Assembly (NCBI RefSeq): GCF_014633365.1
Contig: NC_068351.1
Span: forward strand, 10,670,907-10,734,906
DNA from: Diospyros lotus
Taxonomy: Eukaryota > Streptophyta > Magnoliopsida > Ericales > Ebenaceae
Reading direction: 5' to 3'
DNA length: 64,000 bases
Of this stretch, positions 11,281-60,512 are shown piece by piece (position 1 is the stretch's first letter; every line of letters starts with the position of its first letter). The translations under genes were made by a program, and so were the position numbers. The notes under the pieces are model-generated. The model was not told the origin of the DNA, did no database searches, and saw nothing but the letters and a program-made list of their open reading frames with translations.

Positions 11281-11530
11281 TAAACTTTTTTGCCTATAAT
11301 AGTAAGATTTTTTATCGTTAGAAGAGTGTCGAAAATGCCTATAAATACCCCTCTAATCTCATTTTTGAGATTTCAAGTGCTTCCATTGAAAATTTAAAGT
11401 ACTCGAAATATCTCAAACACTCTTAAGCTATCATCCAAGCAATTCGAGGCTCACAAAATATTATTATACATCAACCAAAGAGCCACAAGGCAAGAGGAAA
11501 AGATATTTTCGAGTCTACTTTTAAATTAAG
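11165..11530 (+). mobile_element. copia LTR fragment, direct orientation
   Basis: It contains CCTATAAATACCCC (LTR TATA box near 11341) and AAGAGCCACAAGGCAAGAGG, both also found in the LTRs at 51475-52762 and 58178-59526. It breaks off in mid-LTR and is joined directly to a late gag segment. This implies a deletion of the rest of the LTR, the primer site and most of gag. Confidence 0.78.
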
Positions 11531-11832
11531 GGTGAAATAATGTCTTTAGAAGAAAAATCACAAGAATTCAAAAAAGAAAATGAAGATAAATTAAAAGATC
11601 AATTAACTAAACTTCAAGAAGAAAATAAAATATTAAAAATCTAAAATAATAAATTGTTAGTAGAGAAGAATGTAATAGAGAAAAATTTAGCCACATTAAC
11701 TTAAAAAAAAATTTAAAACCCAAACCAAAGTACAAAACACCTAAGAAAGAATGAAAACAATCTAGATGGAGACCCCAACTTAAGAAAAACAATATAGTAC
11801 AAATATGGATACCCAAAGGGGTAATACAAATA
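11531..11832 (+). pseudogene. copia gag-protease remnant (relic element)
   Basis: A lysine- and glutamate-rich stretch (EEKSQEFKKENEDKLKDQLT) matches 54955-55045 of the intact family member. It is followed by a degenerate segment equivalent to 55050-55260 that ends near KGVIQIMNE. There are several stops. It is a coiled-coil-like gag tail with no remaining catalytic residues. Confidence 0.7.
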
Positions 11833-12771
11833 ATGAATGAGTTAAATAATAAAATTTTAAATATGGATTTATTTAGACCCACCCAAACTAGAAGTTACGG
11901 TAGAAAATTTTATGCATATGTTGTAGTAGATGACTTTTTTAGGTTTACATGGGTTATGTTCTTAGTATCAAAGAATGAAATATTTCAAAAATTTGTCAAA
12001 CTAGCTAAAAGAATTGAAAGAGAGCAAGATGATAGAATTGTCGCTTTAGAAGCGATCATGATGGGAAATTTGAGAATAGACATTTTATGAAGTTTTGTAA
12101 AACAAATGGTATTTTTCATCAATTCTCCACACCTAGAACCCCACAACAAAATGGTGTTGTTAAAAGGAGAAATAAGACTCTTCAAGAGATGGTTAGGACC
12201 ATACTTTTGGAGATTAACTTGCCAACGTATTTTTGGGTTGAAGTGGTCAATACCGTTTGTTATATCTTAAATAGATTTAATCTAAAATAAGGTATCAAGA
12301 AAACACCATTTGAATTATACTATGATAAAAAGCCTAACATATCCTATTTTAGAGCCTTTGGATGTAAATGTTTTATTTTGAACACAAAGGACAATGTAGA
12401 AAATTTTGAGACTAAAAGTGACAAATGAATCTTCCATGGATATTCAAATACTAGAAGAATATACAATATTAGAACAAATATCTTGGAAGAATTCATACAT
12501 GTAAAATTTAATGAGACTCCTAAGTCAAATATAAGAATCAAAGATGAAGAGGAGATGACAACAATAGATCCATCCAAGGGGATTGAGAAATTAAGAATTC
12601 AAGAAGAATTAGAAAATGAACCATCAAGTTCTCAATCACAAAATTAAGAGAAATTATTAGACGAGGATGATTTAGGCAAACTCGCCAAGAGTTATAAATT
12701 TGTGCAAGATTATCCAATAGTTCAAATAATTGGAGAACCAAGTCAAGGTGTAAGGAATAGAGCATCCTTGC
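11833..12771 (+). pseudogene. copia integrase (relic element), split by CACTA
   Basis: Translated segments show MDLFRPTQTRSYG...AYVVVDDFFRFTWVMFL, then after an internal deletion and frameshift FCKTNGIFHQFSTPRTPQQN. It continues with INLPTYFWVEVVNTVCYILN and FELYYDKKPNISYFRAFGCK. These are the core and C-terminal part of Ty1/copia integrase. The catalytic Glu of the GVVERKN-type motif is Lys (GVVKRRNKTLQ). Stops occur near 12067, 12287 and 12425. The frame stops at RNRASL, where the CACTA element sits, and resumes at 20275 with HQYNIHIS. Confidence 0.85.
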
Positions 12772-12789
12772 CACTACAAGAATTTGAGG

Positions 12790-12991
12790 GTTTTACCCAC
12801 ACACATAAATGTGGGTAAAAATTACCTTATGTGTCAACTATAATTTTTCCTTACACATAATGCAAATGTCAAGATGTGTGGGTAAAAGATGGTAGAAAAT
12901 AACTTTTACCCACACATATATTTATGTGTGGGCAAAACTTAAGATATTACCCACACATATATATGTAGGTAAATATTTTTATATGTGTAGG
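12790..12991. repeat. left subterminal repeats of CACTA element
   Basis: Multiple direct and inverted copies of TTACCCACACATA / TATGTGTGGGTAA are present. Such motifs bind the accessory transposase (TNPA/TNP1 type) in characterised En/Spm elements. The array is interrupted by the solo LTR and continues at 15912-16280. Confidence 0.85.
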
Positions 12992-15911
12992 TGTAACGAC
13001 CCGTTAGTGGGTCTAGGTGTTATGGGTATTTTAGTTTGCACATTAGAGTTGTTGCCTTTATTAATTAATTGTTAAAAATATTATATGAGTTGGTAATGAG
13101 GGTAAATTAATGAAAATAATATTTGGTGTGAAAAAGTCTCAAAGTTGTGGGCTAACTGGGTTTGGGCCTTATTTGAATTAGACCATTGATAAATAATTAA
13201 ATCTTAAGTGTAAATGAATTAGGTTGAACCCAAATCTCAAGAAAAGTCCATTGGGCCTTAATTGAATTGGGCCATATATTTTGACTTGGGCTTGGGCTAT
13301 ATATTTTGACTTGGGCTTGGGCCATGGGCATAGAGAATGGTATCTTAATTAAAAAGAAAAAAAGATTAAGAAAATGGTAAAATGACCAAAATGGGTAAGA
13401 GATATGTGAATTGTGTGTGTTAGTATGAAGGGTAAATTAGAGAAAATTAAAAGGGAGATGGATTGAAAGGAGTTGGGAGACAAGTCTCCCACATTTTTTT
13501 TCCTCTTTTTCTTTCTTCTTACTTTCTTGTCCCCTTCTTCTTCTCCCTCTCCCGATTGTCTCTTCTTCCTCCATTGTTCTTCTTCATTGAAGCTTTAAGT
13601 GGAGACTATGGAATTTTCAATTTCAAGGGGTGTCTTCATCTCTTTGGATTGCAACCATCTAAGGCAAGTTCTCTTCCTTCTTGTTTCAAATTCAAGATCT
13701 TCTTCTTCTTCTTCTCCTTATGATTGTGTAAGTTTTTCTTCTCTTTTTTATCTTTTAATGCAAGTTCTTGAACCTTGTTTCCATCTTAGAAGGCTTGTTT
13801 CCTTCATTTTTAAGTTGTTGCTCTTAAATTCTTATTCTCGGATTCACTGACCATGTTATGTTCTTTGGTCTATAACTCCTTGTGTTTATATCCAAATTGA
13901 GATCCGTTTGTTGGGTTGTAAACTAGACATCTTAAGCTCAATTTTAGACACAAGAATCGATTTTTTTGACTAAGATTTGATCATGTTATAGCCTTGTAAA
14001 TCCCTGCTAAGATCTGGAAATTTTACTGCTTTCGAGTAAACTGACCTTGTTGTACTCTTTAGGGTATAACTCTCTGTGGTTATATCCGATTCAAGATCCG
14101 TTTGTTTCTATATAAACTAGACTTGATAATCTTCATTTGGTAAATTTTTTAGAATTTTTGGCTATGTTTTGAGCCTACAGTATCCTTGTAAATTCTTGCC
14201 CAGAATCTGGAAATTTTCTGCTCTGTTTTTGAATAATCTGTTCTTGCTTCGGTTTTTGGGGTATAATGCTCTGTGGTTATATCCAAATTGTGATCCATTT
14301 ATTTTTTCTATAAAATATACTTCATGGGCTTCGATTCGGTATAAGATTTGAAATTTTTGGTTATGATTTGTACCCATAACAACCTTGTTGAATTCTATGT
14401 AGAATTCTGTAAATTACTGTTACAAATTCTGCCTTGATTCGGTTTTTGTGGAATATCTCCTTGTGGTTATTTCCGATTTCAAATCCAGTTGATGTTCCAG
14501 AAACTAGACTCATTAGGCTTTGATTTGGTATATCGTTTGTGGTATTTGACCAAATATTGAGCCCAGATTGGATTTTTGAAAATATGCTTGAAATCTGGAA
14601 ATTTCTGAAATATGTTGTTATTCAACTCTTCCTATGTAGTCTATCCTTCCTACGTTTAAATTTATGATTTTTGTATAGTTCTTCCATTGTTTTTTTGAAT
14701 TATTCTTGATAACCCTCATTGTTGGATAAAAGGGTTTTATTTTCCTTTTTTCGATAAATCTTGCAATATTAATTCGTTTTCTTGTTGAACATTGCAAAAA
14801 TCTAAATAGGGTTTTGTGTCACCCTACATTTCTTAAGGAATGACATTTATTCATTAGGGTCTAGTGTCATGCAAGATTTAGTGTTTCTTGCATGTATAAA
14901 TTTTGATTCCTTGCGATTATTATTGGGGTAAAAATATACCATAAATATTGGTTTGGGCATTTCTATAAGTATGAGTCAATAAATGTATTAAAATTTACCC
15001 TGTGATCATAAGATAGTGCACACTTTAATTTATGTAATTGTGCATGTTAAGCATGATTTGAGATTTTTCTTAATCATTGAGGATTGACATGAAATGGGGA
15101 TATGCATATGTGATGCATGATTATACTGATTTGCGCACCTATTATTTTGCGCGACGGCTAAGTCCGTGGATGAGAAAGGATATCCTATGAGCGCTTGACG
15201 CGGGTGAGGTGGCCATCAACCCAGAAGGCGTGGCTCAAATTGTTATCATTTGTTGATGTATTTTCATGATGCATATATATTCATGAATGGATATATATAT
15301 ATATATATAGGCCGTGAGAGCCTTGAGAATTATGCAAAAAAATTCCCTACATTTGGTGCATATGCATGAGCATGGGAACGAGTGCATAATATATGTAATA
15401 ATCACGGCATGGGAAATTAATGTAAACCAAGAACTTATGAGTCGCGTTATACTAATATCTCCTCATAGAGTTGTTTATTCTATCTTGATTATCCCTGCCT
15501 TTGATTCTATATCTCCATGCTTTATAAATACACTTGCTGAGCCTTGTGGCTCACCTTGTTTACTCTCATGTCATTCCAAGTACAAGTAGAGCAGTGGTTG
15601 AGGGCGAGCCTAGTGGGGCTAAAGTCCAGGGTTAGAAGTGTACAGAGACCTTCCAAATTAGATGGTCTATGTTAGCATTTGTGATGAGGGCAAGTGTGAG
15701 GAAATTTTATGTTGTAAAATTTGTTAGTGCCCTTGTATTTCATTTTGTTTAGACTATGGTCTAAGATGTTGTAAACCTTTATGTTAGCTTCCGCTGAGTT
15801 TATCTAAGGATAGTATTATGGTGTTGTATGTTATTGTTCTATATCACACTTGTGATGACCTCCTTTCGGATATCCTATGCTAGCGGGACTATCCGGTAGT
15901 GGGCCACTACA
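12992..15911 (+). mobile_element. solo LTR (Tekay/Del-like) nested in CACTA, 2920 bp
   Basis: It begins TGTAACGACCCGTTAGTGGG and ends GTGGGCCACTACA, with TG...CA ends and an exact 5-bp target duplication GTAGG (12987-12991 and 15912-15916). No gag or pol and no internal LTR pair are visible. The TGTAACGACCC start is common in large gypsy LTRs of plants. The short open frames at 13463-13850 lie inside it and are not supported as genes. Its insertion site is the GTGTAGGTA of a CACTA subterminal repeat. Confidence 0.85.
13853..14575 (+). repeat. about 195-bp degenerate tandem repeat, four units
   Basis: Four diverged units can be aligned on TATAACTCYCTGTGGTTATATCC followed by GATCC, then AAACTAGAC and a TTCGGT segment. 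Unit anchors fall near 13871, 14065, 14262 and 14451. They lie within the nested solo LTR. Confidence 0.7.
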
Positions 15912-16280
15912 GTAGGTATTTTCATGTTAGGAAATTGTAATTGTGACATGACTGATGATGTGGCTTTAATTGGATAATGATGTGACATGACACGTGTACT
16001 TGTTTATGTGTAGGTAAAGTTAAGATTATGTGTGGGTAATAATATAAAAATTAATTTTTATATGTGTAGGTAAAAAACGTTATGTGTAGATAAAAAAAAT
16101 ATTATGTGTGGATAATAATTTAAATTTTTTTTTGAATATGTGTGGGTAAAAAAAATATAATGTGTAACAAACATATTATATGTGGACACAATAATATAAA
16201 AAATAATTTTTGTATGAGAGAATAATTTTCATGTGTGGCTAAAAAACATATTATGTGTAGACAAAACTAAAATTTTATAT
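15912..16280. repeat. left subterminal repeats of CACTA, continued
   Basis: Direct copies of TATGTGTAGGTAA / TATGTGTGGGTAA-like motifs resume immediately after the GTAGG target duplication of the solo LTR. They continue the array of 12790-12991. Confidence 0.75.
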
Positions 16281-16429
16281 TTAAAATTTCAATTGTTACA
16301 ACATCTATTATAATATAGTTCAAACATATACACACCAAAAAAGTCATAAAATCACAAAATAAACATAAAATCATAGTCATCTAAAAAGTTCAAGCATAAA
16401 TGAAAAAAAAAGTATAAAATAAATTATTA

Positions 16430-17470
16430 AATCTCGTCGTCGAACTCTTGTTCAGTAGAATAACGGGAAGGGCTAAAGTTGAATGGGTTGAGGCGGGAAA
16501 GGCCGAGGCAAGATCGTTCAGAACTATGATCTGATGGTTTATGTGGAGTAGACGGAAAAGACATAATATTATTCTCAATCAACACTTGTAGCAGCATATT
16601 TACGTCTCCCTAGAGCTCTCGAAAAATAGACTTGTACTGGTTCAAATCTTTAACCAATCGATTGTAGATTGGACGACTAAACTCCTCACTAGTACATGAT
16701 ATCCTGAAAGTACTAGGAGATCGCTTCCAACCAAACAAGCTGATAAATTGTCGTCCAATGACATCCTCTCTAAGATATCTTTATTAATCATTTTATCTGG
16801 AAGATTATCTCGCCTCAACTGTATCATTTGTTCCTGTAAAAAAATGCAACATATTCTTAATCAACTATTTTTAAATTAAAAATAGAGAATCTGCAACTGA
16901 AAATAAGAGTTTACAACTTGACTCATGTGATACATTACGGGAATACCTAAAATTAGAGCACGGTACCATTTGGGAAAATAGAGGAAAATTCACTGTCACA
17001 ATGTAACTGTAATAGAATATCAATTTAATTTTTAAGGCAGTAAAATTTGCACAATAGAAAATCATAAAAAGCAATAAGATCCAATTATAGGTGACAACTT
17101 GAATAATTTTTTAAGGAATTTGAATAATCATGAACAACAAGCATAATTAGGGATGAATTTAGGCCCCACAGCACTTAAAAAGGAATTCTGTAATTGTAAT
17201 TTCCTAGCGTGTGTCCACTTCAACTTAAAGTACTTGAGTAGTTCAGAAGCTGATTGTAAATCCATTCCTGAGGAAAAAACCACATCATGTAAATAAAAAT
17301 GTAAATTGAGCAACTAAAAAGATAATATCAAAAGTTGAATAAATACTATAACTAAACGATTAGTAGGAGGAAAGAGAAAAGAAGAAAACAAAAAAGAACC
17401 TGAAGCCTCCTTAAAAGGAAATTTGGAGCTAGTTCCATCAACAGATTTGTGGAGCAATTTAAGCTAAGTC
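16430..17470 (-). pseudogene. exon-like minus-strand remnant in CACTA, unrecognised
   Basis: I do not recognise the product. Minus-strand blocks look like exons bounded by splice-type sites. One is LHKSVDGTSSKFPFKEAS ending at GT near 17400. A second starts after CCTCAG at about 17270 (GMDLQSASELLKYFKLKW). A third starts after TTTTTTTACAG at about 16835 (EQMIQLRRDNLPDKMINKD). The last runs through FSRPIYNRLVKDLNQYKS, past a stop, to NMLLQVLIENN and ends STEQEFDDEI. The location and the leucine-rich C-terminus could fit a decayed accessory transposase, but a second captured gene is equally possible. Confidence 0.4.
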
Positions 17471-18395
17471 AAGAACTTTTCAGAATTGATGGTGGACACA
17501 AGATGATCATACAACTACAAGTGGGAAACAAACACGTATTAAAAATATGGACCTGTATCAAATAAAATCCATAACACATCAAACCATCAATTGTAAGAAG
17601 ATACATAACACAAATGGGCATCCCTAATGCACAATGCTCCCCCTTTGCAAGGGTTGGGAGAGTCATTTCTGTATCAAGCCTTTACCCTTGTTTCAGAAAA
17701 AAATGTTTTTGCCCCAACTAGTAGGAGTCTGTAATGAAGCCAGGCACAAGACTATATATTTAGTGTGAACACAAATTACACAATCCGTTATCTCTATCTT
17801 TCCCAACTACATCAACTTTATGTGTCGACTCAAACTGATTGAGTTATTCAGAAATTTGAAACAGAAACACATTGAAGGTTCATATGCATTATCATTAAAT
17901 CTTCCCCTCTTATTAACCTTTTTTACAAGCGTAATAAGAGTTTAAAGTCCAAAAAGTTAACAAGTCGTATATCTACATACTTTATAAGGTTTAATTCCCC
18001 CCCCTCTCTCTCCATGCCTCCCATCATTACATGTTTCCAACCTCTATATACCAATATTAACTTACATTAATTTTATTTAAAACTATTTTTATTCATATTT
18101 AGTGGTTTTACAATTTAATTTATTTATAAAACCTAATATATGCATTTAATTGTTACATAATGCTAGTTTTTCAAGGCCACATTATCTCCATCACTATTTT
18201 TTTTTTATAAATGCATTAAAATCTCTATTCATATTTTTTCTTAAGTAGATTTATTAGACAACACCAAATCACATGCATTTACATGTAAAATGACATAATT
18301 CATGATATTAAGCATGTATCAGATCTATCATGGAAAATTCTCTAAAAGAAATTGTCTACCACAATTGAATCTGGCAGGTGAGACATTGAGTAGTG
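17471..18395. other. CACTA interior without recognisable gene
   Basis: The stretch is AT-rich with a pyrimidine tract near 17997-18012 and no domain I recognise. It lies between the exon-like remnant and the RanBP1-derived exons on the same strand, so it could be intronic in a chimeric transcript. Confidence 0.5.
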
Positions 18396-18965
18396 TTAAG
18401 CAATCAAAAATTTGAGAAGCCAGTGAATCGATTTGAAGCTACTTACTCTCAACTCAATAGATGCAAATCTAATACAGAAGAATTCATCCTTCAATTCGCC
18501 ATCAGCAAAATCTGCGGTATGCCAGGCGCAAGACTTGTCGTTCCCTGCGTGCTCCTGAACCGACATAGTCGGCAGAACTGCACAACAAATTTTATGATCA
18601 GGCGCCAAAACAAAAGCATAAAATGACTTTTAAGTAAAATCGAAGAGCAAAACAAACCTAGATGGTTGGCGTAGATCTTAAGGGTCTTTGTTTGCCTCAT
18701 AACGTGCCGAACTTTGCCTGATTCCTTGTGTTTCAAGAGCTTCACCGTACCAGTGCCTCTTTCCTTCCACTGATTCCCGTCCTTATCAAAGAGCTTAGCT
18801 TTCTTGTAAACAAAATTCATATAAATTGCATAAAATGAAACTGTAGATCCTGTAATTGAGTCAGATCAGAATTAATCTTTATGACTGCGGGGGAGATAAA
18901 AAGTACAGATCGAGGATAGCGTCTTCATCTTCTTCTTCGGTGGTCACGGCGACTTCTTCTAGCTT
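18396..18965 (-). pseudogene. captured RanBP1-like gene fragment inside CACTA
   Basis: Three minus-strand exon-like blocks match plant Ran-binding protein 1 in order. First, 18965-18910: KLEEVAVTTEEEDEDAILDL, followed by GT. Second, about 18805-18663: [20 protein letters not shown], then [20 protein letters not shown] and KIYANHL, followed by GT. Third, about 18575-18450: [20 protein letters not shown], then [18 protein letters not shown]. RanBP1 is a cytosolic protein that binds Ran-GTP and promotes GTP hydrolysis in nuclear export. Intron-like gaps remain, so the capture was from genomic DNA. The acidic C-terminal tail and the start codon were not found. It is a fragment, probably not functional. 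Confidence 0.85.
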
Positions 18966-19137
18966 GACGATCGAGCTTAATTTAGTGATTCTTCTGGCGG
19001 CGGAGGTAATGGGCTGGAGAAGGCAGGGAGGGAGAAGGCAAAGCGATAGTGAGAGGGATTTAGGGATTTGGGGACTTGGCGGAGGGAAGGGGGAGATTTG
19101 GCCAGCAAAAGAGGCCGAGAGATTCCCGCCTTTTTAA

Positions 19138-19735
19138 TTCTATTTTTTAAAATATTTAATAATTAAATAAAAAATTATATAATTCATAAAAATAATATTA
19201 ATAATTATTTAATTGATAAAAATAATATAATTTAAGATTATGACATATGATAAAATAATTTAAATTATGATAATTATTAAATATTTTAAATAATAATTTA
19301 TTGTAATTATCTAAAATGTGATAATAAAATAATTTAAATTATTTTATTTTAATTAATATTTATTTAAAAATTTAATTATATTATAAATCTAATAAATATA
19401 ATAAATTAATTTGAAATATCGAATTATTTATTATTAGTTTGTTATCTCAAATAATTAATTTTTTTAATAAATAATAAAAATTTAACTTAATATATTTATT
19501 TAAATTAAAAATTTTAAATTTTATAAGTTAAATTTTTTATATTCATCTCATGTTTAAATGTATATTTAATTTTTTAAATATATTTATACATTAATTTATT
19601 TAATTTTTTATAAAATTTAAATATTTAAATATTCATCTCAAGTTTAAATATTTATAAATTAATTAACTAAAATAAATAATCCAAATATATTTATAAAAAA
19701 AAAAAAAAAGAAATTTAAAATTGACTAGGGATTTA
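19138..19735. other. very AT-rich CACTA interior
   Basis: About 600 bp of nearly pure A/T with short repeats of TTTAAATATTTA-like text and a poly(A) run near 19697. No coding or RNA feature is seen. At 19740-19810 there are several CGTCGCTAAA-type motifs, which resemble the subterminal motif of the small CACTA element at 53429-54734. Confidence 0.6.
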
Positions 19736-19849
19736 TCATTCCGTTGCTAAATCAGCGACATCGTCACTAAATCAACAATGGATTTGAGTAATCCGTCGCT
19801 AAAATTCATTTTTTATTTTTTATTTTTTATTTTAGTTACAGAATGTGAA

Positions 19850-20255
19850 TTATTATACGTGGCTATTTACCCACACATATTACCATTATATGTGGGTAAA
19901 TAGCCACGTATAATATGTGTGGATAATTTATGTGTGGGCAATATAACTCAAAAAACTACCACATTAGCTCTTACGTGAATACCCACACATATATATCATT
20001 TGTAATTATGTGTGGATAATATAATCCAAAATAAATGTCACATCAGCTAAAATTTTATTGAAAAATATCTCATAACCCCTAAAAATGGAGGAAATTTTTT
20101 CGCCAAAATAAGCGTGGGTATATCAATTTATCCACACATAACAAATGTGAATAATGTAACGAGTTTGTCTAATTTAATTACCCACATATTGCCATTATGT
20201 GTGGGTAATTACCCACGTCTAATATGTGTGGGTAATTTATGTGTGGGTAAAACTC
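19850..20255. repeat. right subterminal repeats of CACTA element
   Basis: Copies of TACCCACACATA and TATGTGTGGGTAA in both orientations, some as hairpins (for example around 19868-19912 and 20180-20240). They mirror the left subterminal array, as expected for En/Spm-type elements. Confidence 0.85.
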
Positions 20256-20274
20256 CCAAATTCTTGTAGTGTGC

Positions 20275-21830
20275 ATCAATATAACATTCATATCTAAAGT
20301 TGAACCAACTTCCATAGATCAAGCATTAGAAGATAAGTTTTGGATTAAGGCTAATCAAGAAGAATTAGATCAATTCAAAAGAAATAAAGTATGTGAATTA
20401 GTTCCTAGACCCAAGGATAAATCTATAATAGGAATCAAATGGGTTTTCAAGAATAAATTAGATAAAAATGGAAATATAATAAGAAACATGGCAATGTTTG
20501 TAGCCAAAGGATACTTCCTAGAGGAAGACATCAATTTTGAAGAATTTTATGCTCCCGTGGCTAGGTTAGAAGCAATAAGGATGCTTTTAGCCTTTGTCTC
20601 TCACATGAATTTCATGTTATATCAAATGGATGTGAACAATGCATTCTTAAATAGCTACATAAATGAAGAGATTTATGTGGAACAACCTCCCAATTTTGAG
20701 GATCCTCATTTAGAGTAGTGTGTATAAACTAAGAAAAACCTTATATGGTCTCAAATAAGCTCCTAGAACTTGGTATAAAAGGTTGAGTAAATTTCTTATT
20801 GAGAAAGGTTTTTCAAGGGGGAAAGTTGACACAACCTTATTTATAAGACATGAGAAATCTAATATATTAATAATTTAAATATATGTAGATGATATAGTAT
20901 TTGGAGGGACAAGTGAAAAGCTTTGCAAAGATTTTGCAAATTTAATGACTAGTGAATTTGAGATGAGTCTCATGGGAGAACTCACATATTTTCTAGACCT
21001 CCAAGTAAAATAATTAAAAGAAGGAATCTTTGTCTATCAAGCAAAATATATAAAAGAAATGTTAAAGAAATTTAAGATGGAAAATGCAAAAACAATAGAC
21101 ACACCTATGAGTACATCTACAAAATTAGATAAAGATGATTAAAGGATAAGCGTGGATAAAAAAAAATTATAGGAGTATGATAAGGTCATTACTTTATCTA
21201 ATGGCAAGTGGGCCTGATATCATGTTTAATGTATGCTTATGTACAAGATTTTAATCAAATTTCAAAGAATTGCATGTATTGTCAGTTAAAAGAATTTTTA
21301 AATATTTAATTAGAATCCAAGATATATGCTTATGGTATCCAAATGAGGATAATTTTGAATTAATTGGATATTCTGATGCAAATTTTGTCAATTGTAAGGT
21401 AAACCGTAAGAGCACCTTCGAAACTTGTTAACTATTAGGAAATAAGTTAATTTCATAGTTTTCTAAGAAACAAAACTAGGTAGCTTTATCCACTGTCGAA
21501 TCCGAATATACAGCTGCTGATAGTTGTTGTAGTCAAATTCTTTGGATTCACTAAGAACTAAAAGATTTCGGAATAAATTTTAAGCAAACCCCCATTAGAT
21601 GTGATAATATCAGTGCAATTAACCTATCTAAGAATCCAATGTTGCATTCAAGAACAACGTAAATAGAGGTTAAATATCATTTCCTTAGGGACCATGTTCA
21701 AAATTAAAAAATATTTCTTGAGTTTGTTCCAACGGAATTATAATTAGTGAATAATTTCACAAAACCCTTGTCACAACAAAGATTTGATTTCATTGGAAGG
21801 GAATTAGAGATAATAAACTCTTATTGAATG
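20275..21830 (+). pseudogene. copia reverse transcriptase and RNase H (relic element)
   Basis: An open stretch to 20718 encodes IDQALEDKFWIKANQEELDQ, then LVPRPKDKSIIGIKWVFKNK, FYAPVARLEAIRMLLAFVSH and YQMDVNNAFLNSYINEEIYV, all typical of Ty1/copia reverse transcriptase. Further on, in other frames, are the catalytic YVDDIVFGG at about 20882-20908 and the RNase H end (YTAADSCCSQILWIH, TPIRCDNISAINLSKNPMLH). Stops and frameshifts are frequent. It continues the pol interrupted at 12771. Confidence 0.88.
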
Positions 21831-22440
21831 ATACAATTATACTAATTGTAAAAATATTTTATGAAAAATACTACTTTAAGTACTTTTACTATATCATAAT
21901 TTTAAAATCTTTTCATATTTAATGCCATGTAGTAATATTTTCCATTATGGGTATAATGTACTATTTTTAGTACTTCACGTTACATTTATATTTATATGGA
22001 TTATGCTTGGTAAATTTCTCTCACAAAATATATTGTTTAAGTTTTTATTTTCTCCACTATCAATGTCTTTTTAATTATTACAAAAAGGGAGAGAAAAATG
22101 AGATTTAATGAGATGAAAGATTGTATGTATGAGAGTGAGTTGTAATTTTTAAGTTGTAAAAATTTTTGTATGGGAGAGAAGAATGTATGATAACTTTTAT
22201 GATTGAGAGATTTTGTATGTGACAAAATTGTATATCTGAGAGATAAGAAATCAGTCTAAGCATTCAAGACAAGCATGTGTAATCAAGACAATCAGATTTG
22301 ACAATCAGGTTTGATATTTAAAACTCTTAAAAAATATTTTATTTATTAAGCTATATCCAAAACATTTTTATACTATTAGTATTTTTGAAAATAAGAGTTT
22401 TTATCAAATTAATCATCTCCTAAATTATTTTTTGTTATCA

Positions 22441-22457
22441 TAAAAAAAGGGGAGAAT
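22441..22457 (+). other. polypurine tract of relic copia element
   Basis: TAAAAAAAGGGGAGAA lies immediately before TGTTGAGCCAA, the LTR start. The same arrangement occurs at 58161-58177 in the intact relative. Confidence 0.8.
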
Positions 22458-44262: not shown

Positions 44263-44693
44263 TTTGCAAGTTTAACCTCGGCAGATCCAATCCTTTCAGA
44301 GGGCTCTTCTGTGACTATTGATTGACGCTTTTAACATAATAAGTAAGAATTTTGGGCAAAATACACGATGAATGAATTATTTGCGCAGCAAGCCTACAAA
44401 ATTAAAGCAAAACCTACAAAACAAGATGAACAGAACAGAGTAGCTTAAAATTTAATCAAACATCCCCTAGTAGTTTAAATTGTAAATTATCTGAAACAAA
44501 AAGAAGGGAAACCAAACTAATATCACATACTAAAGAAAAGAAAATATGCAAGAAATTGAAGAAAAGAAACAAAAGAATAGAAAGCAACTTCTCTAGTAAG
44601 TTTTGATGTCTTTAGGTAACATTGCCAACTGACCCATGTCAGTTACAAAAATAGTATAACAAAATTTTTTTTTTATGCAAAAATATAACTTAA
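44263..44693. other. upstream region of UGT copy 2
   Basis: AT-rich sequence with no clear TATA box within 150 bp upstream of the ATG on the minus strand. The TR-GAG element begins 430 bp upstream and may have displaced or supplied promoter sequence. This is an inference from position. Confidence 0.45.
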
Positions 44694-51469: not shown

Positions 51470-51474
51470 GTGTT

Positions 51475-52762
51475 TGTTGAGCCAATTTACTCATATTAAT
51501 TAAGTTTTGATGATTAACAAAAATAGTTTTATGATATAAATGTATTATTTTCTCATATAAAAAATAAATTTATTTTAAATTAAAAGTGGGTGCAAAGAGT
51601 AAATTTATTTTGAATTAAAGATGGATTATCTTTAGAAATGTTTCCTACTTTTGATCATTTATGTCTCAAAAGTTTATGTTTGAATTTTTATTTATTGATA
51701 AATACTTTTATTACTTATGCAAAAAGTATATTTATTTTAAATTAAAGGAGAATTACTTTTAAACATGTTTTCTCTTTCTCATACAAAAAGTAAATTTATT
51801 TTGAATTAAAAAAGATTGCTTTTAGACATGTTTTCTTGTTTTAATCATTCATACCTCAAAAGCTTATATTTGAATTTTTAAATCTTGATTTCTTATGCGA
51901 AAAATAAATTTATTTTGAATTAAATATGAGACATGTTTTCTTATTATTTGATAAAGTCTAAATATTTTTTGAATTTCAAATTTTATATTAATCATTTCTT
52001 TAGTGGCTAAAATGCTTATAAATACCCCATAAACTCATTTTTTGAATATCCATTGCACATATTGCACATCCAATTCTCCCAAAAGTTCTCAAGTTAATTT
52101 TCAAACATTTCAAGGCTCTCAAAGATTCATTATTCATCCACCGAAAAGCCACAAGGTAAGAGGAGAAAAAGATATCGCAAAGCCGAATCCGATCTTCTCC
52201 ATTCAAACTAAGGTCACTGTTTATTTATTTATTTAAATATTATTATCTTGTATAATTTATTCTTAATTGCTTATTTGTGTTCAAGTGTGGAAAAATTATT
52301 TGTAACATTTAAATTATTATTGAGTATTATATAGGTTTCCTAGATCCGTTAAAATTTAGGTAAATCTAGTTTTTAAGGTAAGTTAGGGAGAAAACCTTGG
52401 TATAGTGGTTACCTAGAACCCATTTTAATCTAGGTGTATATCTAGTTTCTAAGGTGAGTTAGTGTGAAAATTTTGGTGATTTTGATTTAGTGGAACTCTA
52501 AGGGTAGTTAGACATTGAGAGAGTGGACTAAGTATATGTAAAAACATTGAACCACTATAAATTGTATTGTGCCTCATTGTATTTATTTTTGTTATATTTT
52601 GTGGCTTACATTTATTATTGATCTCAAATAAAATTTATTATATTTATCAAATATATATTTTTCAATAAAATCATTAATCAAGAATATTTATTAAAATTGA
52701 AAAAAATTTTAATTACTCAATTCATCCTCCCTCTTGAGTGGGCATACCCTAAGGGACTAATA
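51475..52762 (+). mobile_element. 5' LTR of copia element carrying LBD copy
   Basis: The 1288-bp repeat begins TGTTGAGCCAATTTACTCAT and ends AAGGGACTAATA, preceded by target duplication GTGTT (51470-51474). TATAAATA at 52017-52024. It contains three units of a roughly 63-bp repeat (AAATTTATTTTGAATTAAA followed by ACATGTTTTCT); the 3' LTR has four. Related LTR pieces occur at 10518-11530 and 22458-22880. Confidence 0.93.
52017..52024 (+). promoter_or_regulatory. TATA box of 5' LTR
   Basis: TATAAATA in GCTTATAAATACCCC, conserved in the 3' LTR at 58783-58790 and in the relic LTR near 11341. It would drive transcription of the whole element, including the LBD copy. Confidence 0.65.
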
Positions 52763-52764
52763 AT

Positions 52765-52776
52765 TGGTATCAGAGC
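52765..52776 (+). other. primer binding site of copia element
   Basis: TGGTATCAGAGC, an exact tRNA-iMet match, lies two bases after the 5' LTR. Confidence 0.92.
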
Positions 52777-52830
52777 GGGTCCTAAAATATTTGTGATTAT
52801 CAATCTCAAATCTTAGGATAAGATCTTATA

Positions 52831-53428
52831 ATGACTTCTTATTTTAGCAAATCCCTAGGTGATGTCTCAATCCCTTCTAGTCATCTAATGCTCATTAGAA
52901 AGGATTATATTTTTTGGAAGATTAGAATGGAATCCTATATCATTTTCATAAGCTATCTTTTATGGAGATTCGTTAGGAATAGATTTGATCTATCTTCTAA
53001 ATATGAGAAAGAATGGACAAAGGAAGACCTAAAAAAAATAGATATTGACCATAGGGCAAAGTATTTAATTTTTAGTTCTTTAATGTCTAGTGAGTGTGGA
53101 AGATTGTCTTCATGCTCCACTTCTCATGAATTATGGAAAGAATTAGAGAGAATTCATGAAGGAACCAATAATTCTAAAATGAGTTTTCTTATGTCTCAAT
53201 ATCAAAGATATAAGTTATGGCTTAGTGAGACAATTAGTAATTTGAATGGATGGTTCGAAAAAGTCTCAAATATTTTTAGAATGTTAAGAAAAATGAATAA
53301 AGATGCTAAAGAATATAATGAAAAGAAAACATTAGCATTCAAATGTGAGGAGAAAAAGAAAAAGGAAAAGGAAGAAAAAAGAGCCAGGAAATCAAAGAAA
53401 AATGTCATTCACGCATGGGATATGGATG
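52831..53428 (+). pseudogene. copia gag, N-terminal part
   Basis: It begins MTSYFSKSLGDVSIPSS and includes YIFWKIRMESYIIFISYLLW, AKYLIFSSLMSSECGRLSSC, HELWKELERIHEGTN and MSFLMSQYQRYKLW, the usual gag core of this copia group. After MLRKMNKD the normal central and zinc-knuckle portion is missing, and the text jumps to a Lys-rich stretch and HAWDMD. The small CACTA element inserts here. Removing it and one ATG joins WDMD to DSNESFQSNKENARV in frame. Confidence 0.85.
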
Positions 53429-54734
53429 CACTACAAAAAATTTGATTTTTTGCGACGATTTTTTTGCGGCAGTTCTAAAAATCGCCGCAAAACATGGTAT
53501 TTTGCGGCGATTTCATAAAACTACCTCAAAATTCAGTAAAACATGTTTTTTTGCGACGGTTTTCAAAAAATCGTCACTAAATTTAAAAATAATTAAATAA
53601 TAAAAAAATTAAATTCTTTTTCGCGGTGGTTTCTTAGAAACCGCTACTAAATTAAAAAAAAAATTAAAATTAAAATTAAATTAATATTTGCGGCGATTTT
53701 CAAAAATCGCCGCAAAATTCAAAAAAATTTAAAGGAAAAACTGTCGTTAAATTTTAAAAAAATTAAATAGTTTAAAATTAAAATTAAATTAACATTTGCG
53801 ACAGTTTTCAAAAATCGCCGCAAAATTCAGAAAATATTAAATTTAGTAGCAGTTTCTCAGCGGCGATTTTTGAGAAATCGCCGCTAAATTTAAAAAAAAA
53901 AATTAAAAATTAAAAATAAAATAAAATAATTCATTAAAAAATTAAATTTAGCGACGCTTTTCCAAAATCACTGCTAAATTAAAAAAAATTAAAATTAAAA
54001 TTAAAAAAAATCTGAAATATTAAAATTCATTATTTTCATTAAAAATTAAATTTTGCTTAAGAAAATAATTAAAAATTAAATAAATATAAAATCTTAAAAA
54101 TAAATATAAAATTGCATTTAAATTAATAGCAAAATTCATTAAAAATATAATTTAAAAAAATAAAAATAAATTTAAAAAAATTTAATATATAAAATTTTAA
54201 TAATTTTTAAAAAATATATAAAATCTTCTTTTTTATTTTTAATAAATTAATTTATTTAATTTAACTCAACTAATTTATTTTTAATTTATTCTATTATTCT
54301 TTTAAAAATAATCAATTAATAAATATTTTTAATATATATTAAAAAATATAAAATATAATTCTAGAAATTAGTTGTTAGATTAGTATATAATATATATATG
54401 TGCATATATATTAAGGAGTTCTTCGCAGATTAGGCGGTTCACGTGCGCGCGCGCGCACAAAAGGTCTTGGGTTTTTTTTATTAATTTTAGCGGCGGTTTT
54501 GAAACCGCCGCTAAAATTAATAAAAATATTTTTTTTTAAAAATAAAATTTTAATTTAGCGGCGGCTTCAAAACCGCTGCTAAATATTATTGTAACCACCG
54601 CTAAATTACTTATTTAGCAGCGGTTTTTAAAACCGCAGCAAAATTTAAAATTAGCGGCGGTTATTCCAGTGGTTGCTGAAAGCCGTCGCTAAATGCAAAA
54701 AAAACTGCCGCTAAATGTTGATTTTTTTGTAGTG
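53429..54734. mobile_element. small non-autonomous CACTA element, 1306 bp
   Basis: It begins CACTACAAAAAATTTG and ends TTTTTTTGTAGTG, with exact 3-bp target duplication ATG (53426-53428 and 54735-54737). The interior has no coding capacity. It is filled with subterminal motifs of the form GCGGCGATTTTT...AAATCGCCGC in both orientations, and GCGGCGGTTTTGAAACCGCCGC-like variants on the right side. A short (GC)n run lies at 54445-54456. The family differs from the 7.5-kb CACTA. Confidence 0.92.
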
Positions 54735-55376
54735 ATGATTCTAATGAGTCATTCCAATCCAACAAGGAAAATGCACGTGTATGTTTTATGGCTATAGAAG
54801 AAGATGAAGAAGAAGAAGATAACTTAGAGTTAGAAGAATTACAAAAAGCATACGAAGAAGTATATATAAAATATATATCAATTAGGAAAGAAGTAAAAAC
54901 AATCAAGAAGAATCATAAAGAAGAAAATGAAAAATTAAATAGTAAAATAAAGAACTTAAAAGAAAAATCACAAGAACTCAAGAAAAAAAATGAAGATAAA
55001 TTAAAAGATCAATTAATTAATTTTGAAGAAGAAAAAAAATATTAAAAACTCAAAATGATAAATTATTAGTAGAAAAGAAAGCCATAGAGAAAAGTTTAGT
55101 CACATTAATTTTAAAGAAAATTTCAAAACCCAAACTAAGGTACAAAACACCTAAGAGAGAATGAAAACAATCTAGATGGAGACCCCAAACTAAGAGAAAC
55201 AACATAGTACAAATGTGGATATCCAAAGGGGTAATACAAATAATGAATGAGTTAGATCATAAAATCTTAAATGTTACTCCTTATCCACATACATCAAGAA
55301 TAATTAAATCATTTGATCCCAATGAAAAAAGATTCGAGGGACCCGTCTATGGATGGGTGCTTAAGGCTAAAACTTA
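54735..55376 (+). pseudogene. copia gag C-terminus and start of protease region
   Basis: Continues DSNESFQSNKENARVCFMAI, then EEDEEEEDNLELEELQKAYE and a Lys/Glu-rich coiled-coil-like part to 55043. After a stop the region to 55376 contains SKGVIQIMNELDHKILNV, SFDPNEKRFEGPVYGWVLKA and ends KT with a stop. The same arrangement is seen in the relic at 11531-11832. No protease active site, integrase or reverse transcriptase follows. Confidence 0.8.
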
Positions 55377-57000
55377 ACCTTACATGTGCCAGTGTGCATG
55401 AGATTCACATGGGAAACATGTTATATTTGTTTAAGTGAAAACTCATCGCACAAGAGAGGTACAGTTCTATGGTTTAGACTTCACTCACAAAAATATGATG
55501 GAAAGCCAATTGAATAAATGAAAATATGAGATGTTTGGATTTTGGGTAATCACCTCATTTCTAGATTCTAAAATTATTATGGTTTGAAATCTAAGTTTGT
55601 CAAATGCTTTAAAATGTGAAAAATCATTCGGTGGCATATAAAGGAATTGGACTTAATAAAAAAATTTCATGCTTAATTATGTCTAGGTTTTATTCCATGG
55701 TGTTTAAATGTTTGAAATTCTTTGAGATTTTTTTTGAAAATCCTCATTTCCATAATGTTCATCCAACTTGCATGACCTATTGTGATAGATATATATTTTT
55801 GGAGTCATTCAATGCTAGCAAAATTGGTTCGTTTGGAAGAAAAATGAGATTTTGGACAATTTAGTCTTTATTTTTTAGAAGAATTATTATTATTTTTTTA
55901 AATAGTCTAAATATGTTGTGTGCTTAAATGTTTCATTTATGAATGTATTAGGACTTGTAGTATATACATGTGTGTGAGTTATGTCATGTGTTACATAAAT
56001 GTAATAAATAAATAATTTATATATTTAAAAGTTTTAGTAAAGAATATTTATTTAATCAATTATTATGCTAAGTGATGTGGAAGAAATTTGTTGTGTAAAC
56101 TTCATTTATTTTCTTTTTAAATAATAATAATAATAATAACAATAATAATAAATTAAATTAAATTAAAATTAAAAAAACACAAACACTATAGTTTATAAAA
56201 TAAAAAAAAACTCCCGTTGACCCTTCTTCTCTACTCTCTCTTCCTCCTCTCACTCGAACCCTCTCCGACTGCCTCTTTCTCTCTTGTCGCCCTTGACCTC
56301 CTCTCTATCTCACTCTCTCTTGTCGCATGCGTCCTTCTCCATCGTCCCCTTGTTCATCGTCCCCTCGTTCATCTTTGCCTCACCGTCGTTGCAGCCTCAA
56401 GATCTGCAGTCGCCACCGTTGTTGCCGTCGCTCAGACCTAGGCCGGTCGCTACTCTCGCCAGATCGAATCCACTAAGATCTGCTTCACCACCATCAGATC
56501 GCGGTCTCTATTATCATCGGCCAAATTCGCATCGGTCGCCGTTGTTACCGCCTTCTAGATCCACCCCGACAGCCACCCAAGTCTGCTTTCGCCGCCATCT
56601 CTCAGCCTCTGGTATCTCTCTTGTTCGCCGCCACTTCTCTATTATGCAGTCGATCAGATCCATGACATCAATTAGATTCATAGTGAGCTCTTTTTCATTT
56701 GCATTTCTTTTCTATCTTGGTGATTGTTCTTGTTAGGGTTTCATAGTAGTTTGTCCTTTGTCTGGCCCATTCTACCCAGATTCAGCTAAATCTACCAAGA
56801 TCTACTCAGTCCCAACATCCAGTAAGATCTATCCAGATCCAGTCAGATCTACCTAGTACCCAGATTTAGCTAAATCTATCCAGATCTACATAGTACCCAA
56901 ATTTGACTAGATCTTCCCAATCGTAAACAAAAATTAATTAAAATTAAAATAAAATTAAAAAAATTAAATTAAATTAAAATTAAAAAATAAATGGAATATC
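55377..57000. other. unassigned cargo region of copia element
   Basis: In place of pol there is DNA I do not recognise. 55390-55860 has short frames only. 56100-56160 is an AT-rich TAA microsatellite. 56210-56740 is GC- and pyrimidine-rich, with frames reading Ser/Arg/Pro-rich text and the look of a leader. 56750-56930 has repeats of CAGATCTACC and TAGCTAAATC. This may be additional captured DNA or an old insertion. Confidence 0.5.
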
Positions 57001-57596
57001 ATGTCAGGACCTGGTTCTCCGTGTGGTGTCTGCAAAGTATTAAGAAGAAAATGTACTCAATCATGAGTCTTTGCCCTTTACTTCTGTCATGAAGAATGAG
57101 CTATTGATTTTGTAGCTATCCATAAGGTTTTTGGTGCCAGTAATGTCTCAAAGTTACTGGACCAGCTTCCGGTTAGTGATCGTTGTGGGGTTGTCGTTAC
57201 ACTCTTGTATGAAGCTCAAGCTAGACTTCAAGATCCTATTTATGGCTGTGTATCTTACATTTTTTCCCTCCAACAGCAAGTCGTTGATCTTCAATTTCAT
57301 TTAGCTTTATTAGAGCAATTACTATTTGCAAACTCTCTCAATGTTTAAAATTGGTTTCACCTAGAAACCAATTTAAACCCATATTATGACAATGGATCTT
57401 TTCTCGTGGATGATCCAAAAACTCTATTTGGAATTTTGAAAATCCGGTCATCCAAGAAGAAAATGTATCGTTTCCTTATTTTCAAGAGACTAGTTTGCAA
57501 CCTTACCCAGTCGAAACTAGTAACAGCCAATGGCCATTCCCATGTGATATAGATGAACTTGGATTCGTCATGTTCGACAACCATTATCAGCATTGA
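57001..57596 (+). pseudogene. intronless LOB-domain (LBD) gene copy inside copia element
   Basis: From the ATG at 57001 it reads MSGPGSPCGVCKVLRRKCTQ, then S-stop-VFALYFCHEE-stop-[44 protein letters not shown] and [20 protein letters not shown]. After a frameshift it reads NPVIQEENVSFPYFQETS and ends CDIDELGFVMFDNHYQH, with stop TGA at 57594-57596. This is a LATERAL ORGAN BOUNDARIES domain: C-x2-C-x6-C-x3-C zinc motif, GAS block and coiled-coil. LBD proteins are plant nuclear transcription factors. The fourth Cys of the zinc motif is replaced by a stop. Full length (about 198 codons), absence of introns and a natural stop suggest capture from mRNA. It is a pseudogene. Confidence 0.88.
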
Positions 57597-58160
57597 GTAT
57601 CGACGAAATCCAAAGATATCAACGTGGGTGTCTTAGATTATCACTTTGTAAATTTTGTAATGTTACTATATCCCTTGACGTTACTGTGATTAATTTATTT
57701 AATGTTGTGTAATTGTGGATTATGCTCAATATTGTGGATTATGCTCGATATATTTATCTCATGAGCTATATTGTTTATATATCTTTATTTTCTTCGTTAA
57801 CAATGTCTTTTTGATTATGACAAAAAAAGGGAGAAGAATAAAAAGTTATGAGATGAGAGATTGTATGTATGAGAGTGTGAATTGTATATTATTTTCTTAT
57901 AGGAGAAGAAAAATGTATTATGATATTTTTTCGTGTATGTGAGGAAATAATATATCTGAGAGATAGGACATCAAGCAAGTGTAATCAAGACAATCAGGAT
58001 TTTAAAAACTCTTAAGAATTATTTTATCTATTAAGCTATATCCAAAATACTTTTATGCTATTAGTATTTTTGAAAGAAGGAGCTTATAGTATAAAATTAA
58101 GGGGGAGTTAAAAAATATTTTATCAAATTAATAATCTCATAAATCATTTTTTTGTCATCA
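57597..58160 (+). other. 3' non-coding region of copia element
   Basis: From about 57790 (AACAATGTCTTTTTGATTA and following) it matches 22060-22250 of the relic element, so this is original element sequence. 57597-57710 directly follows the LBD stop codon and may include the 3' untranslated region of the captured gene. Confidence 0.7.
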
Positions 58161-58177
58161 TAAAAAAAAAGGGAGAA
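58161..58177 (+). other. polypurine tract of copia element
   Basis: TAAAAAAAAAGGGAGAA immediately precedes the 3' LTR. Confidence 0.88.
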
Positions 58178-59526
58178 TGTTGAGCCAACTTGCTCATATT
58201 AATTAAGTTTTGATGATTAACAAAAATATTTTTATGATATAAATGTATTTCTTTTTCATATAAGAAATAAATTTATTTTGAATTAAAAGTGGGTACAAAG
58301 AGTAAATTTATTTTGAATTAAAGGTGGATTATCTTTAGAAATATTTTCTACTTTTGATCATTTATGTCTCAAAAGTTTATGTTTGAATTTTTATTTATTG
58401 ATAAATACTTTTATTACTTATGCAAAAAGTATATTTATTTTGAATTAAAGGAGAATTACTTTTAGACATGTTTTCTCTTTCTCATACAAAAAGTAAATTT
58501 ATTTTGAATTAAAGAGAATTGGTTTTAGATATGTTTTCTCTTACTCATATAAAAAGTAAATTTATTTTGAATTAAAAGAGATTATTTTTAGACATGTTTT
58601 CTTCTTTTAATCATTTATACCTCAAAAGCTTATATTTAAATTTTTAAATCTTGATTTCTTATGCAAAAAATAAATTTATTTTGAATTAAATGTGAGACAT
58701 GTTTTTTTATTGTTTGATAAACTCTAAACATTTTTTGAATTTCAAATTTTATATTAATCATTTTTTTAGTGGCTAAAATGTTTATAAATACCCCCTAAAC
58801 TCATTTTTTGAATATCCATTGCACATATTGCACATCCAAATCTCTCAAAAGTTCTCAAGCTAATTTTCAAACATTCCAAGACTCTCAAAGATTCATTGTT
58901 CATCCACCTAAGAGCCACGAGGCAAGAGGAGAAAAATAGATTGTAAAACTGAATCCGATCTTCTCCTTTCAAACTGAGGTCACTGTTTATTTATTTATTT
59001 AAATATTATTGTCTTGTATAATTTGTTCTTAATTGCTTATTTGTGTCAAAGTGTGGACAAATTATTTGTAACATTTAAATTATTATTTAGTATTGTATAG
59101 GTTTCCTAGATCCGTTAAAATCTAGGTGAATCTAGTTTTTAAGGTAAGCTAGGGAGAAAACATTGGTGTAGTGGTTATCTATAACCCATTGTAATCTAGG
59201 TGTGTATCTAGTTTTCAAGGTGTGTTAGTGTGAAAATTTTGGTGATTTTGATTTAGTGGAACCCCAATGATAGTTAGATCTGGGGAGAGTGGACTAGGTG
59301 TATGTGAAGACACTGAACCACTATAAATTATTTTGTGCCTCATTGTATTTATTTTTATTATATCTTGTGGTTTACATTTATTATTGATCTCAAATAAAAT
59401 TTATTATATTTATCAAATATATATTTTTTAATAAAATCATTAATCAAAAATATTTATTAAAATTGAGAAAAATTTTAATTACTCAATTCACCCCCTCTTG
59501 AGTGGCCATATCCTAAGGGACCAACA
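58178..59526 (+). mobile_element. 3' LTR of copia element carrying LBD copy
   Basis: This 1349-bp copy begins TGTTGAGCCAACTTGCTCAT and ends AAGGGACCAACA, followed by target duplication GTGTT (59527-59531). TATAAATA at 58783-58790. It has one more 63-bp internal repeat unit than the 5' LTR. With 51475-52762 it delimits an 8052-bp element. Confidence 0.93.
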
Positions 59527-59531
59527 GTGTT

Positions 59532-60512
59532 CACTTCCAAAGATGAGTGCGTTTATGCACGAGATATTAAATACTTAAAATAATTATTTTTATCAATTAA
59601 GATATTAAAATTTAATATTTTGTACCATGAACTAAACATTATATTTTTAATTGTTGGGTGACCTTGAATATCTATTCAAGATATTTGGATAATGTATTGA
59701 CCAAATGCTTTAAACATATAAATTACATAAGGAAATACCATACAAGCAATTGCCTTATCCTTTTTTTAGATAAAAACTTAAAAAAGTGATAAGTTGTATA
59801 TTAAGAAATTCTTGTTTTCAATTGAAATGAGACTCAACTCATGTGTCTATTATGAGATTAGACTAGTGAGTTTTTAGTTATTAATAAAATTTAGAAGATA
59901 CTATATTATTAAGTTTTGATGATAATATTTAAAGATTTTTACACTTAAACCTAATTAATAAGGATAAACAATCACATGAATAATTAAGAAAACTAAAAAC
60001 ATGTTTTCACATGCATAGCACAATGATAAAACACAAAAAAGATAACAAAAGTATCGGATGATTGAATTCTTATGACGTCTTGAAAGACATAATTATTGTA
60101 GGAAGGCAGCATTAACTGAAAAGTAATAGTAAGGTCGGAAGACAAGTCACCTAAGTGGAGGCAAGGTTATGGTATGCTTATCGCCACTTCAGAAGTCTTA
60201 TCTGCACGACGTAAAGGTGGGGTCCATAGGGAGGGTAGTCATTTCATAAAAATTCACTCCGAGTGTGCATAAACTATAATCGTATCCACATTTACCTAAA
60301 AAGTAAACTAGAGAGGAATGTTGCTTTTCTCATGATTAGTTGGGTAGACCTCAGACACTTGGGTCACAAAAAAAAAAAAAAAAAACTAAAAAACATGATA
60401 TCATGCCTTCACTAAACACAATTACCCATCCCTAAACAATCACACTAGTGAGAGACCAGCCATACCTTTTTAAAGATAAGATAAGCGAGACTCTACATAC
60501 TAGATGGAGGCA
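59532..60512. other. spacer between copia and Harbinger-like elements
   Basis: AT-rich with a poly(A) run at 60369-60386. No coding or RNA feature is supported. Confidence 0.5.

What the first reader, a model, noticed from the sequence alone, without database searches (positions are those of the whole stretch)
57001..57596. Full-length LBD transcription-factor copy carried inside a copia retrotransposon
Seen: a complete LOB-domain reading frame (ATG, zinc motif, GAS block, coiled-coil, natural stop) with no intron lies where pol should be, in an element bounded by two LTRs, primer site, polypurine tract and exact GTGTT duplication. It has two in-frame stops and one frameshift. Inference: the gene was transduced as mRNA and the LTR TATA boxes could transcribe it. 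If it is expressed it could make a non-coding or small-RNA regulator of the parent LBD gene. I do not know of this particular combination, but I could not search.
Basis: partly seen in the sequence, partly recalled or inferred. Interest (0 to 1): 0.85.

Follow-up and report, generated by a model that had tools for sequence, protein, structure and literature searches.

The report
LBD gene copy inside persimmon retrotransposon
In the date-plum persimmon (Diospyros lotus), a copia retrotransposon carries, in the place of its enzyme genes, a full-length but broken copy of a divergent LBD29-type transcription-factor gene, which was likely picked up as messenger RNA; capture of host genes by such elements is known, but the source is likely an unusual, fast-changing gene branch seen here by name only in persimmon.

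Summary
An 8.05-kb copia element (51475-59526; LTRs 92.8% identical, primer site, polypurine tract, GTGTT on both sides) keeps a damaged gag; no pol was recognised. Against a pol-bearing relative in the same window (11523 to beyond 22457), homology ends at 55272 and returns at about 57714-57735, so a 2.44-kb foreign block sits where pol belongs. It holds a full-length LBD copy (57001-57596), sense-oriented and without intron. It has three premature stops, not two, plus one frameshift; the first stop replaces the fourth zinc cysteine. The host is Diospyros lotus. The copy does not derive from ordinary LBD29: it groups with two D. lotus proteins from other contigs and two unnamed ENA proteins in a divergent clade (98/99). 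Changes shared in that clade avoid conserved sites; the copy's private changes do not. This fits constraint before capture and decay afterwards. RNA-level capture by template switching is likely but unproven: the parent's introns could not be read, because the own-genome search did not complete, and papers disagree on introns in this LBD class. Expression could not be tested. It is a new member of a known kind.

The parts
51470..51474 (.). target-site duplication GTGTT, left
51475..52762 (+). 5' LTR, begins TGTTGA; TATAAATA at 52017
   Evidence: alignment; (92.8% identity to the 3' LTR over 1285 aligned columns, K2P 0.076; the alignment used 51475-52761)
52765..52776 (+). primer binding site TGGTATCAGAGC (initiator-tRNA-Met type, recalled)
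52822..53428 (+). gag, first part (PF14223, E 5.7e-12)
53429..54734 (.). CACTA-like insert in gag, inverted ends CACTACAAAAAA, ATG on both sides
   Evidence: (I11)
54735..55272 (+). gag, second part; homology to the relative element ends at 55272
   Evidence: 54932-55272 is 87% identical to 11523-11862
55273..57713 (+). foreign block in the place of pol
   Evidence: no match to the relative or to the rest of the window found inside it; right junction 57714-57735, blurred by a tandem duplication with a 19-bp period
56150..56987 (+). stretch bounded by two exact 27-nt A/T-rich repeats (56150-56176, 56961-56987) around a GC-richer piece
57001..57596 (+). full-length LBD29-lineage pseudogene: stops at 57064, 57097, 57346, then one frameshift
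57714..58177 (+). element's region after pol, ending in polypurine tract AAAAAAAAAGGGAGAA
   Evidence: 57735-58177 is 68.5% identical to 21997-22456
58178..59526 (+). 3' LTR; TATAAATA at 58783
59527..59531 (.). target-site duplication GTGTT, right
11523..22457 (+). related copia element that keeps pol fragments (integrase remnants within about 11863-12780, RT 20272-20718), itself broken by a large insert; used only for comparison

Best explanation
A copia retrotransposon of Diospyros lotus carries, in place of its pol genes, a full-length, intron-free but broken copy of a divergent LBD29-type gene that was likely taken up as mRNA by template switching during reverse transcription. The likely steps are: LBD mRNA was co-packaged with element RNA; reverse transcriptase jumped to it and back (inferred); the chimera was inserted as one unit with a GTGTT duplication (LTRs and repeat are seen), with enzymes supplied by a pol-bearing relative (inferred). 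After insertion the LBD decayed without constraint (supported). The source was a fast-evolving but constrained LBD29-like branch, not canonical LBD29 (supported by the tree).
For: One unit: LTR pair and GTGTT on both sides. The block sits where the relative has pol. The LBD is in sense, from ATG to natural stop, with no intron-sized gap against P0003. The longest A-run in 57598-57713 is 3, and the best direct repeat around the LBD is 7 nt, reached by 260 of 300 shuffles, which speaks against a LINE-made insertion. Source clade: window copy with P0003, P0004, P0006 (98/92) and P0129 (98/99) against 26 canonical rows; residues S21, E32, G63, L68, Y86, F99, L103 common to the first four. Host: 487 of 487 residues of a window UGT frame equal D. 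lotus P0157, listed on a contig of the same length as the window's. Private changes of the copy: 5 of 8 at invariant columns; shared changes: 3 of 20. One survey reports one intron in most class Ib LBD genes (PMC9504267, passages; that LBD29 is class Ib is recalled).
Against: The D. lotus parent's exons were not seen, so intron loss is not proven. Another survey reports eight class Ib genes of physic nut without introns (PMC11649428, passages). About 1.7 kb of the block upstream of the LBD is unexplained and could be genomic DNA. No clear microsimilarity marks the junctions: the best shared word of the two block edges is 9 nt (AATGTTACT, 55270 and 57659), reached by 25 of 300 shuffles. Weak inverted matches enclose the LBD slightly more often than in shuffles. 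P0003's private changes also hit invariant columns (7 of 12), so it may itself be relaxing. One copy of the element was examined.
Confidence: 0.55

Rival explanations
1. DNA-level capture: a genomic piece with an already intronless LBD29-like gene and its upstream region was pasted into a pol-deleted element by recombination or end joining, then carried along by retrotransposition.
For: The block is 2.44 kb, much longer than the LBD coding part, and about 1.7 kb upstream of the LBD has no match to the relative element, the rest of the window or Pfam. The parent's intron status is unknown, and eight class Ib genes of physic nut are reported without introns (PMC11649428, passages).
Against: The copy is in sense with the element and its match to relatives spans ATG to stop; another survey reports one intron in most class Ib genes (PMC9504267, passages).
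Confidence: 0.27
2. Stepwise patchwork: the element lost pol first, then several separate insertions landed in the gap, including a retroposed GC-rich piece between 27-nt repeats, and the LBD.
For: The exact 27-nt repeat (56150 and 56961) is longer than in any of 300 block shuffles (largest 16), and exact copies occur only there in the window, with one 3-mismatch copy at 56936; composition changes from 26% to 48% GC.
Against: The LBD itself has no significant direct repeat and no A-tail; the 27-nt word is a low-complexity AAATT-type word, which such shuffles model poorly.
Confidence: 0.12
3. The copy is an active regulator: read-through from the LTR makes an RNA or small RNAs that silence LBD29-like genes, as the pseudogene OGI does to MeGI in the same species.
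For: TATAAATA in both LTRs; a small-RNA-making pseudogene is known in D. lotus (PMC7048303, abstract and passages); [quoted passage not shown]
Against: No expression data; signs of decay; the LBD lies about 5 kb downstream of the 5' LTR's TATA box, behind a CACTA-like insert; the LBD had no second match on either strand in the window.
Confidence: 0.05

Closest known systems
Maize Bs1 LTR element with captured host-gene segments (PMC13317346, passages)
   Same: LTR element carrying host-gene sequence between its LTRs
   Different: Bs1 holds segments of three genes, none with a full-length frame; here one gene is full length (though broken) and lies in the place of pol, in a copia element of a persimmon
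LTR-captured genes of rice (672) and sorghum (1,343) (PMC3726574, abstract and passages)
   Same: host genes inside full-length LTR elements, in rice often turned into pseudogenes
   Different: this one is an LBD transcription factor from a divergent clade; LBD genes were not looked for in that paper's lists
TR-GAG elements (PMC8704663, passages)
   Same: LTR element with gag and without pol, thought to use enzymes of other elements
   Different: gag here is broken and a host-gene copy sits in the pol place
LTR-mediated retroposition by template switching (PMC5408686, passages)
   Same: mRNA-like copy between LTRs, in sense
   Different: junction microsimilarity and intron loss are not shown here
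OGI pseudogene of D. lotus (PMC7048303, abstract and passages)
   Same: decayed copy of a regulatory gene in the same species
   Different: OGI arose by segmental duplication with an inverted repeat and has a shown function; none of that is shown here

Membership tests
copia LTR retrotransposon without pol | paired LTRs with target-site duplication | tested here: met
copia LTR retrotransposon without pol | PBS and PPT in place | tested here: met
copia LTR retrotransposon without pol | copia-type gag | tested here: met
   PF14223 E 5.7e-12
copia LTR retrotransposon without pol | no pol domain | tested here: met
   no pol family in the 12 open frames of the element scanned against Pfam
TR-GAG element | single intact gag reading frame | tested here: not met
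   gag is cut by a CACTA-like insert and its second part ends at a stop after 55042; it may have been intact before
LBD29-like gene | LOB domain | tested here: met
   PF03195 E 1.7e-20
LBD29-like gene | complete CX2CX6CX3C zinc motif | tested here: not met
   fourth cysteine position is TGA 57064
LTR-mediated retrocopy | intron loss relative to parent | tested here: inconclusive
   copy has no intron; parent not seen, the genome search unanswered
LTR-mediated retrocopy | copy inside an element unit, without own A-tail or target duplication | tested here: met
LTR-mediated retrocopy | microsimilarity at switch points | tested here: inconclusive
   25 of 300 shuffles reach the 9-nt match
LINE-made processed pseudogene | A-tail and target duplication around the copy | tested here: not met
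Pack-MULE / Pack-CACTA capture | terminal inverted repeats around the captured piece | tested here: inconclusive
   no long pair; two weak pairs enclose the LBD (56953-56977/57690-57714, 76%; 55527-55542/57606-57621, 88%); pair counts reached by 10 and 6 of 200 shuffles, best matches by 15 and 32 of 200

The most novel reading that the evidence does not exclude
The whole divergent LBD29-like clade of persimmon was born from and spread by this copia element: an element-borne developmental transcription factor that kept a selected LOB domain while it travelled, with some copies still coding intact proteins elsewhere in the genome.
Probability: 0.17. Interest if true: 0.75.

Novelty: new member of a known kind. 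Interest (0 to 1): 0.42.

Why it matters
It gives an anatomically complete, roughly datable case of a plant retrotransposon carrying an entire developmental transcription-factor copy (LBD29-type genes act in auxin-driven root branching, from recalled knowledge), with a pol-bearing relative in the same window for comparison. It also points to a fast-evolving LBD29-like branch in persimmon that deserves attention by itself: changes shared within it avoid conserved sites, as selection would leave them.

Tried and rejected
Own-genome search for LBD loci and for other copies of the element: not completed (17 tries). LINE-made insertion of the LBD: rejected. TIR-element capture: not supported, not excluded. 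Homology of 57597-57714 to the relative's region after pol: not above chance, 160 of 500 shuffles. Pfam for the rest of the foreign block: no family in six open frames scanned, at E up to 1 (two frames) and 0.1 (four frames). Rfam on 51400-59600 and tRNA scan of the window: nothing. Structure model of P0003: low confidence (mean pLDDT 54, pTM 0.26), so no fold search was made. Conservative-exchange test against neutral simulation: P0003 0 and P0006 1 of 300 simulations as conservative, P0129 12, P0004 30, window copy 48, so this second test does not support constraint for the window copy. Chenopodium P0005 was left out of the tree because it reads as two joined LOB domains; both break off after LQQQ, which hints at an intron there in an LBD18-like gene (recalled label) but is no evidence for the parent here.

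Full report
What the window is. The UGT open frame at 42751-44211 (minus strand) is identical in 487 of 487 residues to a Diospyros lotus protein (P0157); P0157 and the window's other UGT (P0153) are listed on contigs of the same length, 36,294,965 bases. The window is therefore from D. lotus (Ebenaceae, Ericales).

The element. Two LTRs, 51475-52762 and 58178-59526, align at 92.8% identity over 1285 columns (69 transitions, 23 transversions, K2P 0.076). With substitution rates recalled from memory (1.3e-8 and 7e-9 per site and year) that is about 2.9 to 5.4 million years. GTGTT stands directly outside both LTRs. A primer site TGGTATCAGAGC lies at 52765 and a polypurine tract ends at the 3' LTR. 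Gag of copia type is recognised at 52822-53445 (PF14223, E 5.7e-12). A 1.3-kb CACTA-like insert, with ATG on both sides, cuts it. No pol family was found in the 12 open frames of the element scanned against Pfam.

The place of pol. A related element in the same window (11523 to beyond 22457) keeps integrase remnants (PF13683, E 7e-4, below the curated cut-off) and an RT piece (PF07727, E 1.8e-27). Its gag end is 87% identical to 54932-55272, and its region after pol is 68.5% identical to 57735-58177. Homology stops at 55272 and returns at 57735. A tandem duplication with a 19-bp period (copies at 57713 and 57732) makes the right edge uncertain by about that length. Between lies a foreign block of about 2.44 kb. 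The relative is itself damaged: its integrase remnants begin where the focal element's homology ends, so the left edge could also coincide with an older deletion in either element. Left of the right edge, 57597-57714 shows no homology to the relative beyond chance (160 of 500 shuffles).

The LBD copy. The frame 57100-57348 matches the LOB domain (PF03195, E 1.7e-20) and the solved Ramosa2 LOB domain (E 1.7e-17). In the frame of ATG 57001 there are stops at 57064 (TGA), 57097 (TGA) and 57346 (TAA); the frame then shifts near 57405-57420 (from the alignment), and the natural end is TGA 57594-57596. P0003, an intact 201-aa protein, follows the copy from the first methionine to the final residues, with a four-residue gap as the only one before the frameshift, so the copy is full length and has no intron. 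The first TGA stands at the fourth zinc cysteine.

Which gene it came from. The searches gave 2,091 proteins with E up to 1e-5 against the read-through copy and 3,196 against a four-row profile; 120 were listed each time. The top four in both are P0003 and P0006 (ENA, contigs of 840 and 629 bases, so probably transcripts), P0004 (D. lotus, a contig of another length) and P0005, which reads as two joined LOB domains and was left out of the tree. P0129 (D. lotus, a third contig length) appears lower. In a tree of 31 rows (the window copy and 30 chosen by me from the listed hits), the window copy, P0003, P0004, P0006 and P0129 form one clade (98/99) apart from 26 canonical LBD29-like rows. The window copy pairs with P0004 (96/85, highest identity 79% over 117 columns), although by path length P0006 (0.72) and P0003 (0.75) lie nearer than the fast P0004 (0.9). 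P0129 has a long branch (1.24), so its place is less sure. Over the LOB part, Camellia and Vitis agree in 102 of 105 residues, the window copy and Camellia in 77 of 103, the window copy and P0004 in 86 of 103.

Constraint, then decay. Against 145 canonical rows (145 of the 145 proteins taken from the capped lists), 50 of 105 columns are invariant. Changes from the canonical consensus fall there less often than in neutral simulations for all five members (0 of 300 simulations as low, in each). A second measure, how conservative the exchanges are, departs from neutral for P0003 and P0006 (0 and 1 of 300), weakly for P0129 and P0004 (12 and 30) and not for the window copy (48). Split by kind, shared changes avoid invariant columns (window 3 of 20, P0003 1 of 27, P0006 2 of 25, P0004 3 of 21, P0129 1 of 15), while private changes do not significantly do so (window 5 of 8, P0003 7 of 12, P0004 3 of 8, P0129 7 of 18, P0006 1 of 6). 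Part of the avoidance is built in, since shared residues can be old variants. The window's 8 private changes (two of them stops) in 105 codons are in line with the 12 substitutions of all kinds that the LTR divergence predicts for 315 bases. So decay since this insertion is enough, and the LBD was probably near intact when the element landed. P0003's own private changes warn that it too may be relaxing.

How it got there. There is no A-tail (longest A-run 3 in 57598-57713) and no significant direct repeat around the LBD. Two weak inverted pairs enclose it; such pairs are somewhat more frequent than in shuffles (6 and 10 of 200 reach the counts), their best matches are not clearly so (32 and 15 of 200), and they are not at the block's ends. 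The sense orientation and the place inside one element unit fit template switching between element RNA and a co-packaged mRNA, as reviewed in PMC5408686 (passages) and PMC13317346 (passages). But about 1.7 kb of the block lies upstream of the LBD and matched nothing that was searched: Pfam on six open frames and the rest of the window. A GC-richer piece there (48%) is framed by an exact 27-nt A/T-rich word with no other exact copy in the window. Papers disagree on introns in this LBD class: most class Ib genes with one intron in one survey (PMC9504267), eight class Ib genes without introns in another (PMC11649428). RNA capture is therefore likely, not proven. The parent's introns, the key test, could not be read, because the genome search gave no answer in any of 17 tries.

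Literature. Capture of host genes by plant LTR elements is well known: Bs1, Rider/SUN, hundreds of cases in rice and more in sorghum. Searches for LOB domain with retrotransposon and retrocopy (0 papers), Diospyros with LOB domain (11 listed, none on this by title and start of abstract), lateral organ boundaries with LTR retrotransposon and retrogene (1 paper, on WOX genes) and persimmon with LTR, captured, pseudogene and small RNA (2 papers, neither on this by title) found no report of this element. The library holds open-licence papers only.

Verdict. The thing is real, the capture is convincing, its RNA route is likely, and a regulatory role is untested. It is a new member of a known kind; the divergent LBD29-like clade behind it is the more surprising lead. 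On re-checking, confidence in the RNA route was lowered from 0.58 to 0.55 and the DNA rival raised from 0.25 to 0.27, because of the physic-nut intron report and the inverted-pair control.

Noticed in passing
53429-54734: 1.3-kb CACTA-like non-autonomous insert with repeated GCGGCGGTTTT-type motifs, inserted in gag with ATG on both sides.
   Followed up: partly
56150-56176 and 56961-56987: Exact 27-nt A/T-rich direct repeat framing a GC-richer, CT-rich segment; could be the target duplication of a retroposed piece with an A-rich tail, or a simple-sequence coincidence.
   Followed up: partly
57345-57377: Short hairpin (14-nt arms, 93% complementary, 5-nt loop) inside the LBD copy.
   Followed up: no
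11523-22457: Related copia element with pol pieces, split by a large insert (about 12780-20275) with repeated acccacacat-type motifs near its ends.
   Followed up: partly
27196-28755 and 42748-44271, minus strand: Two zeatin O-glucosyltransferase-like genes, 75% identical to each other by the listing, the second matching D. lotus P0157.
   Followed up: partly
P0003, P0004, P0006, P0129 (protein ids): Divergent LBD29-like clade; the full-length member P0003 has a shortened part after the LOB domain, and P0129 has lost a zinc cysteine (C11R).
   Followed up: partly
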